This document shows, one piece after another, positions 2,631-6,393 of a stretch of DNA of 57,586 bases (positions within the stretch are counted from its first letter, which is position 1; each line of letters begins with the position of its first letter). The stretch is taken from positions 1-57,586 of the forward strand of contig CACBDG010000015.1 of assembly GCA_902537945.1 (NCBI GenBank). The letters run 5' to 3'. A program made the translations under genes and the position numbers. Below the pieces are notes generated by a model. It ran no database searches, was not told the DNA's origin, and worked only from the letters and a program-made list of their open reading frames with translations. The stretch is from an uncultured SAR116 cluster alpha proteobacterium. Its GTDB lineage: Bacteria; Pseudomonadota; Alphaproteobacteria; Puniceispirillales; Marisalimonadaceae.

Positions 2631-3863
2631 TCAGACCAACACATTATCCTTTCTCATTATATGGTCTGAAATTTGTTGAGATGTAAAGGCACTAAGTGTC
2701 CAGCCAAGATGTCCGTGACCAGTATTGTAAAATACTCCAGGCAACTTTCCACTACCAACTCTTGGCACCATACTAGGTGTCATAGGTCTTAATCCTGCCC
2801 ATGGTACAGCGTGTTCTGTGGATACTTTTGGAAAAAGCTCATTACACCACTTTATAAGAGGGTTAATTCGATCTGCTCTTATATCTTTGTTATATCCATT
2901 AAACTCAGCTGTTCCTGCGACTCTAAATCTATCTTTTCCTAATCTACTTGATACAATTTTAGCTTTGTCATCTAGTAAAGAAACATAAGGAGCATTTTTT
3001 ACACTTTCTTTGTCGCTAAGTAATATTGTAATTGAATAACCCTTAACAGGATATATATTAATGTTATCACCTAAGTCTTTTGCAATAAATTTACTATTCA
3101 CACCAGCACAAACTACAATTCCATCAAAATTTTGTTTTTGAATATTGTTGGAATGATTAAATGAAAGTATTGGTTGTTTTTTGTTGTGATGAACTTTAAT
3201 AATTTCTGTTTCAAAAAAGAATTTCACACCCTTTCTCTCACAAGCGTCAGCGAGCAATTTTGTAAACTTATGAATGTCTCCAGACATATCACTTTTTGTA
3301 TAAAATCCACCAATAAAATTTTTAAGATTCAAAGTGGGCTCAATAGATAACATCTCATCTTTAGAAATTTCTCTTCTATCCAATCCTGCTTCCAAAAGCC
3401 ATTTATTAACCTCTCTACCATGTTCTAATGAAGCATCACACTCACATAAATGCATGATTCCCTTCTCTTCAAGATCTAGTTCTATATTTTCTTTTATTAA
3501 AATTCTTTTGAACTCATCTCTACTATTTATAGCCATTTTAGCTGTTAAAATTGTATTTTGTTTGTGGTTTGGAATATTACTTATAAAATCTATTATCCAG
3601 CTAAGTTTATGAAAGTTTAGTTTGGGACTAAATAGCAATGGTGCATCTTTTTTTAACATCCATTGGATGCCTTTGCCTATTGTTGACCAACTATTCCAAA
3701 CTTCAGCATTGCAAGCAGACAATTGCCCACCATTTGCAAAACTTGTTTCCATAGCAGCATATCGATTTTTATCAAAAACAGATACAGTATAACCTCTTTC
3801 TAAAAGTTGGTAAGCAGTGGTTATCCCAGTTATACCTGCACCTATTATTGCTATATTTTTCAT
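2631..3863 (-). CDS. DadA-family FAD-dependent amino-acid dehydrogenase/oxidase under glycine riboswitch control
   Basis: 410 residues. The N-terminal dinucleotide-binding motif is GAGITG at residues 8-13, followed by an acidic-end beta strand (VFDKN). The C-terminus has WAGLRPMTPSMVPRVG and NTGHGHLGWTLSA, characteristic of the D-amino acid dehydrogenase (DadA) group of DAO flavoproteins, which oxidatively deaminate small amino acids and pass electrons on. No alanine racemase gene (dadX) is adjacent. The gene has its own promoter and a tandem glycine riboswitch in its leader, with Shine-Dalgarno GGAG (3870-3873) six bases before ATG. The family assignment is firm. The true substrate (D-alanine, glycine, sarcosine or another) is not fixed by sequence; the riboswitch argues for glycine or a compound linked to it. 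Symbol withheld for that reason. Confidence 0.88.
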   Translation of the reverse strand: MKNIAIIGAGITGITTAYQLLERGYTVSVFDKNRYAAMETSFANGGQLSACNAEVWNSWSTIGKGIQWMLKKDAPLLFSPKLNFHKLSWIIDFISNIPNHKQNTILTAKMAINSRDEFKRILIKENIELDLEEKGIMHLCECDASLEHGREVNKWLLEAGLDRREISKDEMLSIEPTLNLKNFIGGFYTKSDMSGDIHKFTKLLADACERKGVKFFFETEIIKVHHNKKQPILSFNHSNNIQKQNFDGIVVCAGVNSKFIAKDLGDNINIYPVKGYSITILLSDKESVKNAPYVSLLDDKAKIVSSRLGKDRFRVAGTAEFNGYNKDIRADRINPLIKWCNELFPKVSTEHAVPWAGLRPMTPSMVPRVGSGKLPGVFYNTGHGHLGWTLSAFTSQQISDHIMRKDNVLV

Positions 3864-3870
3864 AATAAAC

Positions 3871-3918
3871 TCCGTGACAAAGTTTTTATAAATTAAATAT
3901 TACCCCATCTGTCACGGA
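3871..3918 (-). promoter_or_regulatory. Predicted Shine-Dalgarno-sequestering hairpin of the glycine riboswitch
   Basis: A perfect 9-base inverted repeat joins bases 3910-3918 (RNA UCCGUGACA) and 3871-3879 (RNA UGUCACGGA), separated by about 30 bases. The downstream arm includes GGA of the GGAG ribosome-binding site (3870-3873) of the DadA-like gene. The upstream arm shares two bases with the 3' strand of aptamer 2 stem P1 (3907-3911) and includes conserved aptamer core positions. The two folds should exclude each other, so ligand-bound aptamer 2 should free the ribosome-binding site. The repeat is seen in sequence; the switching mechanism is inferred. Confidence 0.7.
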
Positions 3919-4070
3919 ACCTGAAAGATTGACCAAAACTGGCTTACCCCTTCGGTGGATGATAAAAAATCATCACTCTCCAGATTATCAACTTTTTGTG
4001 TTTCGGGTGCCTGAGAGTTTCCGGGGTGGTTGCTCCTTCGGCGGTTAAAAATAACTCTCTCACACAAAAA
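3906..4070 (-). promoter_or_regulatory. Tandem glycine riboswitch
   Basis: Read on the minus strand, the leader contains two copies of the glycine aptamer core. Aptamer 1 has GAGAG, GCCGAAGGAGCAA and CUCUCAGGCACCC, closed by a perfect 9-bp P1 (UUUUUGUGU at 4062-4070 with ACACAAAAA at 3993-4001). Aptamer 2 has GGAGAG, ACCGAAGGGGUAA and CUUUCAGGUUCCGUGACAGA, closed by a 5-bp P1 (AUCUG at 3981-3985 with CAGAU at 3907-3911). The linker is short, as in cooperative tandem glycine switches. The only gene downstream is the DadA-like flavoprotein, so the usual gcvTHP target is replaced here. Confidence 0.93.
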
Positions 4071-4084
4071 GACTATGATATTTA

Positions 4085-4113
4085 ATATTAACAATGTTTT
4101 AAAATAAAAACAA
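4085..4113 (-). promoter_or_regulatory. Promoter of the riboswitch/DadA-like transcript
   Basis: On the minus strand TTGTTT (4108-4113) and TAATAT (4085-4090) are separated by 17 bases, a good sigma-70-type pair. Transcription would start near 4078, just before stem P1 of aptamer 1. The -35 lies 14 bases past the EamA gene's stop, so the DadA-like gene can be transcribed on its own. Confidence 0.65.
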
Positions 4114-5460: not shown

Positions 5461-6393
5461 TTAATTTAGTCTATCAAAAATTAAATCAGCAGCTTTATTT
5501 CCAGAAATAAATGCATCTTCAACATTTGGACCTTCTAAAAAATCTCCTGCAATTGCAATTGGATACTTAGGATCAATCTGACATCCAAAACACTTATTTG
5601 CTACCTTAGCATATTTCCAAACATGTAAACTATGAAATTTTATTTTGGAATTAATAAAAAACTGTTTTATTGAGGATAATATTTCTTCTTTTAGGAATTC
5701 TTTATCTTTATTATAATTTGAACTTGAAAATTCTTCATTAGTATGAGCAGTCCAAACATTCTGATTACTTCCTGCAGCCATCCAACTCAATATTCCTGGT
5801 TTTTTATAAAAATCATAATGAGTTTTTAGATCGAATGGAATTTTATCAAAAGTAAACATTAAAGCTATGCATGCATGATATGATCCTGTTTTGAGAGTTT
5901 TTTGTAATGAAGGAAATTTATACAATAATTGGTGGTTTTGAGGTGCTGGAAGTGTTGAAATCACCCCATCAAAACTTTTCCATTCTTTTATTTTATCGTC
6001 AAGAACATTAATTTTATTATTTTTTGGTTCAATTTTGGTAATTTTCACTTTTTGTTGGATGTGTAATCCTTTTGATAAATTTACCAAAAAATCTCTCATT
6101 GTTTTATTACCCCTATATCGTTTAGGGTCAAATTTTCCAAATTCTCTTATGTATTTCTCTTTAATTCCTGTACGAATAATTTTTTTAAATATATTTGTTT
6201 TAGCAGTAAAAAATTGGGCACCATGAAAAAAAAAACTTGACCTTGAATCTTTGTTTACTCCTCTAGTACTTATTCTTCCACCAATAAAATTTCCTTTATC
6301 TACAATGATTGAATTTATCCCATAAGATTTTAACTTTAATGATGAAGAAATTCCTGCTATGCCTGAACCAATTATTATTACTTTTTTTGACAT
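5461..6393 (-). CDS. FAD/NAD(P)-binding amine-oxidase-like (renalase-type) protein
   Basis: 310 residues. The N-terminus has GSGIAGISSSLKL followed by VDKGNFIGGRIST, the dinucleotide-binding fold plus the GG-R-x-[ST] motif of amine oxidases. HGAQFF at about residue 57 and the C-terminal AIAGDFLEGPNVEDAFISG segment (second FAD contact) are typical of short bacterial renalase-like proteins. These are NAD(P)H-linked flavoproteins whose bacterial roles are poorly defined. A Shine-Dalgarno AAAGGAT precedes the ATG. It is divergent from the HAD gene across a 46-base gap. The substrate is unknown. Confidence 0.85.
   Translation of the reverse strand: MSKKVIIIGSGIAGISSSLKLKSYGINSIIVDKGNFIGGRISTRGVNKDSRSSFFFHGAQFFTAKTNIFKKIIRTGIKEKYIREFGKFDPKRYRGNKTMRDFLVNLSKGLHIQQKVKITKIEPKNNKINVLDDKIKEWKSFDGVISTLPAPQNHQLLYKFPSLQKTLKTGSYHACIALMFTFDKIPFDLKTHYDFYKKPGILSWMAAGSNQNVWTAHTNEEFSSSNYNKDKEFLKEEILSSIKQFFINSKIKFHSLHVWKYAKVANKCFGCQIDPKYPIAIAGDFLEGPNVEDAFISGNKAADLIFDRLN

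What the first reader, a model, noticed from the sequence alone, without database searches (positions are those of the whole stretch)
3864..4113. Tandem glycine riboswitch with a built-in ribosome-binding-site switch driving a DadA-type flavoenzyme
The leader has a promoter, two aptamers with intact closing stems and a 9-base inverted repeat. One arm of the repeat lies at the 3' end of aptamer 2 and shares bases with its P1 stem; the other covers the Shine-Dalgarno GGA. When glycine folds aptamer 2, the upstream arm is occupied and the ribosome-binding site is free, so this should be a translational ON switch. The target is unusual: glycine riboswitches classically control gcvTHP, and here the only gene is a D-amino-acid-dehydrogenase-like flavoprotein. 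That points to glycine (or a closely tied amine) as inducer and perhaps substrate, a route for burning glycine in a streamlined genome.
Basis: partly seen in the sequence, partly recalled or inferred. Interest (0 to 1): 0.82.

Follow-up and report, generated by a model that had tools for sequence, protein, structure and literature searches.

The report
Glycine riboswitch controlling a dadA flavoenzyme
An ordinary two-part glycine-sensing RNA sits in front of a gene for an amino-acid-oxidising enzyme in a marine bacterium whose whole family seems to have lost the usual glycine-breakdown machinery, so the enzyme may be its replacement.

Summary
Window 4074-3899 (-) carries two RF00504 glycine aptamers (62 and 56 bits), the genome's only ones. 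The exact 9-bp repeat 3910-3918/3871-3879 pairs the 3' end of aptamer 2 with the Shine-Dalgarno. Geometry, conservation and moderate covariation support a translational ON switch for a single dadA gene (PRK12409, 631 bits). No promoter beyond chance was found.

The "unusual" target is a widespread pairing: 53 of 53 dadA-bearing genomes of this SAR116 family and 31 of 32 examined loci from other Alpha- and Betaproteobacteria. I found no text naming it, but the likeliest supplement could not be read.

The context is the interesting part. None of 58 family genomes has a convincing GcvP or GcvH of the glycine cleavage system. Across 136 genomes of the order, dadA and gcvP are nearly exclusive (both 3, gcvP only 39, dadA only 70, neither 24). 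In 39 sister-family riboswitch loci the riboswitch sits on gcvT (26) or dadA (13). Best reading: a glycine-induced flavin dehydrogenase turning surplus glycine into glyoxylate. The substrate is inferred.

The parts
3989..4074 (-). glycine riboswitch aptamer 1 (RF00504)
   Evidence: 62.2 bits, gathering 32
3899..3993 (-). glycine riboswitch aptamer 2 (RF00504)
   Evidence: 56.4 bits, gathering 32
4076..4080 (-). leader segment UAUCA, 5' strand of the leader-linker helix
   Evidence: 92% of cells paired in A1; A-U to G-C change on both sides in 10 sequences at one pair
3986..3990 (-). linker segment UGAUA, 3' strand of the leader-linker helix
   Evidence: position counted back from the P1 start
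3976..3985 (-). 5' strand of P1 of aptamer 2 (AUCUG) and the GAGAG that follows
   Evidence: P1 pairs invariant in 45 of 45 leaders; position
3907..3911 (-). 3' strand of P1 of aptamer 2 (CAGAU)
   Evidence: invariant in 45 of 45 leaders; position
3910..3918 (-). upstream arm of the inverted repeat (anti-Shine-Dalgarno), sharing 3910-3911 with P1
3871..3879 (-). downstream arm of the inverted repeat, covering GGA of the Shine-Dalgarno
3870..3873 (-). Shine-Dalgarno GGAG, 6 nt before the ATG
2631..3863 (-). dadA-type FAD dehydrogenase, 410 aa, NCBIfam NF009074/PRK12409
   Evidence: 631 bits, curated cut-off 494; PF01266 215 bits

Best explanation
A canonical tandem glycine riboswitch acts as a translational ON switch for a single dadA-type (PRK12409) flavin dehydrogenase. 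Without glycine, the 3' end of aptamer 2 pairs with the Shine-Dalgarno and closes it. When glycine folds aptamer 2, P1 takes the shared bases, the hairpin cannot form fully, and dadA is translated. In this SAR116 family, in which no convincing GcvP or GcvH was found, the enzyme most likely oxidises surplus glycine to glyoxylate and ammonia, and malate synthase G can take up the glyoxylate. Shown by sequence: aptamers, repeat, SD overlap, conservation, target, missing GcvP and GcvH. Inferred: glycine as ligand in vivo, switching, and glycine as substrate.
For: Aptamers. Repeat over the SD; all 9 pairs kept in 32 of 45 leaders, 8 in 9, 7 in 3, 6 in 1; 95.6% of cells paired against 27-49% when slid, covariation score reached by 0 of 500 shuffles. 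Arm-SD duplex matched by at most 5 of 500 shuffles in 41 of 47 testable SAR116 leaders and 7 of 13 of the sister families. The ligand-free fold keeps the SD closed (unpaired probability 0.000-0.084 for GGA). Target: dadA and riboswitch occur in the same 53 of 58 family genomes, on one contig and strand, the riboswitch ending about 20-40 bases before dadA in each (places read). GcvP: no match above 29 bits in 58 genomes, against 477-589 bits where it is real; GcvH: no match above 22 bits. Order level, tabulated by hand: both 3, gcvP only 39, dadA only 70, neither 24. Malate synthase G in 111 of 136 genomes at E <= 0.001, 103 over the cut-off. The closest solved structures by sequence and fold are glycine oxidases. 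No alanine racemase among 10 neighbouring proteins scanned with Pfam, of which 4 had no match at all.
Against: Forcing P1 in the nearest-neighbour model costs about 8 kcal/mol and does not by itself free the SD, which re-pairs elsewhere, so switching would have to be co-transcriptional and helped by aptamer tertiary structure that the model lacks. RNAalifold on the 45 leaders does not show P1 of aptamer 2: it pairs AUCUG with CAGGU instead. Only one of the nine SD pairs has changes on both sides (11 sequences), and shuffles reach that count of pairs too; the other changes are wobbles, one-sided or unpaired cells. P1 never varies, so it gives no covariation. L034 and L036 have lost most inner pairs. 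Outside the order only 1 of 31 testable leaders passes the same strict test, so the platform is not general to dadA riboswitches. In the family, 9 of 58 genomes have a PF02347 match over the curated cut-off of 26 bits and 1 of 58 a PF01597 match just at its cut-off; I judge these to be other enzymes by score, coverage and frame length. Glycine oxidases match at only 17-20% identity and the DAO superfamily as a whole resembles them. Malate synthase G was not found in G000 itself (75% complete). 7 of 39 gcvP-only genomes gave no RF00504 match.
Confidence: 0.72

Rival explanations
1. The riboswitch senses glycine, but the enzyme's main substrate is another compound tied to glycine, such as D-alanine or another D-amino acid, sarcosine or other N-substituted glycines; glycine is only a signal of amino acid or peptidoglycan-precursor plenty.
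For: The NCBIfam name is D-amino acid dehydrogenase; the fold neighbours include sarcosine oxidases and D-arginine dehydrogenase.
Against: Riboswitch-target logic usually ties ligand to pathway (general knowledge); dadA and gcvP nearly exclude one another in the order; no alanine racemase among the 10 neighbours scanned.
Confidence: 0.35
2. The expression platform is not translational but works by Rho-dependent or other transcriptional control, or RNA decay, with the SD hairpin secondary.
For: P1 formation does not free the SD in the folding model; outside the order the arm-SD pairing mostly fails the test while the riboswitch stays.
Against: No intrinsic terminator was found; arm-SD pairing is kept in most SAR116 leaders.
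Confidence: 0.15
3. The near exclusion of dadA and gcvP reflects shared ancestry of a few large clades and not functional replacement.
For: Most of the count comes from one family (53 of 70 dadA-only genomes); three genomes hold both; 24 genomes hold neither, so glycine disposal by either route may be dispensable.
Against: The pattern recurs in separate genera of two other families, e.g. G093 (100% complete), G137 (98%) and G156 (99%) have dadA and no strong GcvP.
Confidence: 0.35

Closest known systems
Tandem glycine riboswitch RF00504 upstream of gcvT (glycine cleavage operon)
   Same: Two aptamers, leader-linker helix, single platform; in sister families of the same order it precedes gcvT in 26 of 39 loci examined
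   Different: Here the target is dadA, and no convincing GcvP or GcvH was found in the family
SAR11 (Pelagibacter) glycine riboswitches on glcB (malate synthase) and gcvT
   Same: Marine alphaproteobacterium; glycine sensing tied to the glyoxylate-malate step (passages of PMC5069720, PMC2211319, PMC2704228)
   Different: SAR11 regulates the glyoxylate-consuming step; here the riboswitch is on a putative glyoxylate-producing step
glycine-GGAnGA RF03166
   Same: Same clan, tandem layout; it was the listed clan hit of the permissive scan (66.5 bits)
   Different: Far below its gathering score of 110; both aptamers pass RF00504 instead
Glycine oxidase ThiO (PDB 7cyx, 4ysh, 1ng3)
   Same: Same DAO fold; best solved matches by sequence and fold
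   Different: 17-20% identity in the structural alignment; TIGR02352 137.8 bits, below its cut-off of 250.8
D-amino acid dehydrogenase PRK00711 (NF001933)
   Same: 316 bits
   Different: Below its cut-off of 383; the protein passes PRK12409 instead (631 against 494)

Membership tests
Glycine riboswitch RF00504 | covariance model score over gathering for each aptamer | tested here: met
   62.2 and 56.4 bits, gathering 32
Glycine riboswitch RF00504 | tandem aptamers with leader-linker helix | tested here: met
   UAUCA/UGAUA; 92% of cells paired, A-U to G-C change in 10 sequences
Glycine riboswitch RF00504 | binds glycine | not testable with these tools
   needs in-line probing or similar
Glycine riboswitch RF00504 | expression platform that overlaps aptamer 2 (anatomy only) | tested here: met
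   arm shares 2 bases with P1 and covers the SD; kept in most leaders; functional coupling not tested
glycine-GGAnGA RF03166 | score over gathering 110 | tested here: not met
   66.5 bits
PRK12409 D-amino acid dehydrogenase (NF009074) | score over curated cut-off | tested here: met
   631.4 bits, cut-off 494
PRK12409 D-amino acid dehydrogenase (NF009074) | oxidises D-amino acids | not testable with these tools
   family name only; no assay
Glycine oxidase ThiO (TIGR02352) | score over curated cut-off | tested here: not met
   137.8 bits, cut-off 250.8

The most novel reading that the evidence does not exclude
PRK12409 'D-amino acid dehydrogenase' is a misnamed glycine dehydrogenase feeding electrons to respiration, and it stands in for the glycine cleavage system in a whole marine family: the glycine riboswitch marks whichever glycine-disposal enzyme a SAR116 lineage has kept, gcvT or dadA.
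Probability: 0.45. Interest if true: 0.7.

Novelty: new member of a known kind. Interest (0 to 1): 0.5.

Why it matters
The riboswitch itself is standard, but its consistent pairing with one flavoenzyme for which I found no assay gives a strong clue to that enzyme's substrate. If right, a family of ocean bacteria oxidises glycine to glyoxylate instead of cleaving it to one-carbon units, which would change how their one-carbon and nitrogen budgets are modelled. SAR11 would then regulate the next step of the same route.

Tried and rejected
Unusual one-off target: rejected, the pairing is widespread. Variant specificity class GGAnGA: rejected on score. Promoter: not above chance. A riboswitch that simply moves to dadA when the cleavage system is lost: weakened, because G096 and G097 hold GcvP with no RF00504 in the fetched 8-9 kb around it while their riboswitch is at dadA, and many of the outside genomes have four or more aptamer matches, i.e. 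more than one riboswitch; differential retention fits better. DadX-DadA operon: no alanine racemase among 10 neighbouring proteins scanned at E <= 1e-8, 4 of which had no match; one Asp/Glu racemase-like neighbour in L069. Strong covariation claim: toned down, since only one pair changes on both sides. P1 as covariation evidence: useless, invariant. The cross-lineage ranking of arms against foreign SD regions was mixed (own SD ranked first for 5 of 31 arms) because arms are alike between relatives; not used as support. In one search the anchor was misplaced for L156; one search corrects it. The Fisher values ignore ancestry and are not used. Paper searches.

Rows dropped: alignment A1 has 45 rows, the window and 44 of 48 SAR116 loci; left out were L013 (leader cut short), L031 and L052 (N in the leader), L035 (identical to L028). 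Of 40 regions fetched, L151 was a placeholder and is not counted, leaving 39 loci in 38 of the 51 riboswitch genomes outside the own family (chosen from the places that one search listed); L158 holds only part of gcvT. L169 was likewise a placeholder and unused. The dadA count of 73 includes two fragments below the cut-off (G027, G138).

Full report
What is there. The - strand leader of window gene 3863-2631 holds two glycine riboswitch aptamers, 4074-3989 (62.2 bits) and 3993-3899 (56.4 bits), both over the gathering score of 32 and the only two in the 1.93 Mb, 75% complete genome (the whole-window scan listed only the first). In a permissive scan the listed clan hit was RF03166 glycine-GGAnGA at 66.5 bits, well under its gathering score of 110, so it does not qualify as that variant. 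A leader-linker helix UAUCA/UGAUA, known from tandem glycine riboswitches (recalled, and seen as reference titles), is present and covaries: 92% of cells paired, with an A-U to G-C change on both sides in 10 sequences at one pair.

The switch. The repeat TCCGTGACA (3918-3910) and TGTCACGGA (3879-3871) is exact; the second arm covers GGA of the SD GGAG at 3873-3870, six bases before the ATG. The first arm shares 2 bases with the 3' strand of P1 of aptamer 2 (3911-3907). In 45 leaders (window plus 44 of 48 SAR116 loci; the four left out are named in Tried and rejected), 32 keep all nine pairs, 9 keep eight, 3 keep seven and 1 keeps six. Cells paired are 95.6%, against 27-49% when the partner is slid; the covariation score is not reached by any of 500 shuffles, but only one of nine pairs has changes on both sides (11 sequences), a count of pairs that shuffles reach as well. 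RNAalifold, unguided, finds the same stem (8 of the 9 pairs plus one more), the helices of aptamer 1 and P2 of aptamer 2, with 13 of 49 pairs having double changes; it does not show P1 of aptamer 2 but pairs AUCUG with CAGGU, as in a closed state. P1 of aptamer 2 is invariant in 45 of 45 and so adds nothing by covariation.

A duplex test against 500 shuffles of the SD region gives at most 5 of 500 in 41 of 47 testable SAR116 leaders (49 given, two with N), in 7 of 13 dadA leaders of the sister families, and in 1 of 31 testable dadA leaders outside the order (32 given). The exceptions among the SAR116 leaders include L034 and L036, where most inner pairs are gone. So the SD-closing platform is a feature of SAR116 dadA leaders and not of dadA riboswitches in general. 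The one outside leader that passes, Acetobacteraceae L054, has the same layout with the stem changed on both sides (read by eye; -19.4 kcal/mol).

Energetics. The ligand-free ensemble (-62.8 kcal/mol) is essentially the ensemble with the SD hairpin (-62.7); forcing P1 of aptamer 2 gives -54.6, and in that state the model re-pairs the SD elsewhere. The OFF state is thus well supported. The ON state must rely on co-transcriptional folding and tertiary aptamer structure that the model does not hold. No intrinsic terminator was found, and promoter-like sites are at chance level.

The target. The gene is NCBIfam PRK12409 (631 bits, cut-off 494); it is below the cut-offs of PRK00711 DadA and of ThiO glycine oxidase. 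The two solved sequences matched at E <= 1e-10 are glycine oxidases. By fold, glycine oxidases rank first at 17-20% identity, followed by sarcosine oxidases and other DAO enzymes (AlphaFold model, mean pLDDT 80.9). The gene is followed by a convergent gene on the + strand and preceded by EamA, rhodanese and a second flavoprotein.

How wide the pairing is. In the own family (58 genomes) 53 have RF00504, 52 of them two matches and one (G035) a single match at a contig start. The same 53 have PRK12409 dadA, one of them (G027) only as a fragment below the cut-off; in each the riboswitch ends about 20-40 bases before dadA on the same strand (places read). The five without either are 57-78% complete. 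Of the 51 riboswitch genomes in the other families of the order I took 39 loci from 38; the gene found downstream is gcvT in 26 (one partial) and dadA in 13. Outside the order, 31 of 32 PRK12409 loci in the search for related loci set carry RF00504 within about 350 bases upstream; L063 does not. This set was chosen by similarity to the window protein, so it is not a random sample. In G157, a dadA genome of the same order, no RF00504 was found; in G138 the dadA fragment starts at a contig end.

The cleavage system. A strong GcvP (477-589 bits, PF02347) is found in 42 of 136 genomes of the order and in 0 of 58 of the own family. In the family 19 of 58 genomes have a weak match (20-29 bits), 9 of them over Pfam's cut-off of 26; these cover one stretch of the profile in ORFs of 523-620 aa, and similar ones occur in genomes that also hold a strong GcvP (e.g. 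G120), so I judge them another enzyme. GcvH (PF01597) gives weak matches (19-21 bits) in 4 of 58 genomes, in 400-677 aa frames, one of them (G050) reaching the cut-off of 22.2 with its neighbours in the frame; I judge these to be lipoyl-type domains of other proteins. GcvT was not tested in this family, and many genomes are incomplete, though 0 of 6 with at least 90% completeness has a strong GcvP. Tabulated by hand from the listings: both 3 (G096, G097, G153), gcvP only 39, dadA only 70, neither 24; 103 of 104 riboswitch genomes have one or the other, while 7 of 39 gcvP-only and 2 of 70 dadA-only genomes gave no riboswitch match. Malate synthase G is present in 111 of 136 genomes, 103 over the cut-off, though not found in G000; glycine hydroxymethyltransferase is present in G000.

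Interpretation. Making one-carbon units from serine yields glycine; without the cleavage system that glycine has to go elsewhere (established biochemistry). A glycine-induced flavin dehydrogenase giving glyoxylate, with malate synthase as sink, fits. SAR11 regulates malate synthase by a glycine riboswitch (passages of PMC5069720 and PMC2211319), so the two marine groups may control neighbouring steps. The substrate is not shown.

Literature. Searches for glycine riboswitch with D-amino acid dehydrogenase (0 papers), with dadA (3 papers; passages of two seen, unrelated; the third seen only in the listing) and with FAD-dependent oxidoreductase (1 paper, one of the two just named) found no mention of the pairing; riboswitch with D-amino acid dehydrogenase and glycine gave 5 papers, of which I saw passages of one, unrelated, and the listing of the rest. 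Passages of PMC2211319, PMC6944388, PMC12452182 and PMC3766115 do not name it, but PMC3766115 lists twelve glycine-metabolism orthologs in a supplement that could not be read, so it may already be tabulated there. SAR116 with glycine cleavage: 4 papers, seen in the listing only. Subscription papers are mostly not held.

Verdict. An ordinary tandem glycine riboswitch with a well-supported translational ON layout, on a target that is conserved and apparently little noticed, in a lineage in which I found no convincing GcvP or GcvH. New member of a known kind; the biochemical consequence is the interesting part.

Noticed in passing
G159-G165 (genus g20): Seven genomes of a sister family lack a strong GcvP, PRK12409 dadA over the cut-off and RF00504 alike, so they would have to dispose of glycine in another way.
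   Followed up: no
L166 (G157:C226): PRK12409 dadA gene with no RF00504 match on the fetched stretch, against the rule in the order.
   Followed up: partly
L034, L036: A sub-branch keeps both aptamers but has lost most inner pairs of the SD hairpin.
   Followed up: partly
L167 (G096), L168 (G097): GcvP with no RF00504 within the fetched 8-9 kb around it, while the riboswitch of the same genomes sits on dadA.
   Followed up: partly
L065:5559-5622, L079:5559-5622, L078:7094-7157: nhaA-I RNA motif (RF03057) downstream of dadA in Comamonas loci.
   Followed up: no
window 5461-6393 (-): A second flavoprotein with weak amine-oxidoreductase matches, next to a rhodanese-domain gene.
   Followed up: no
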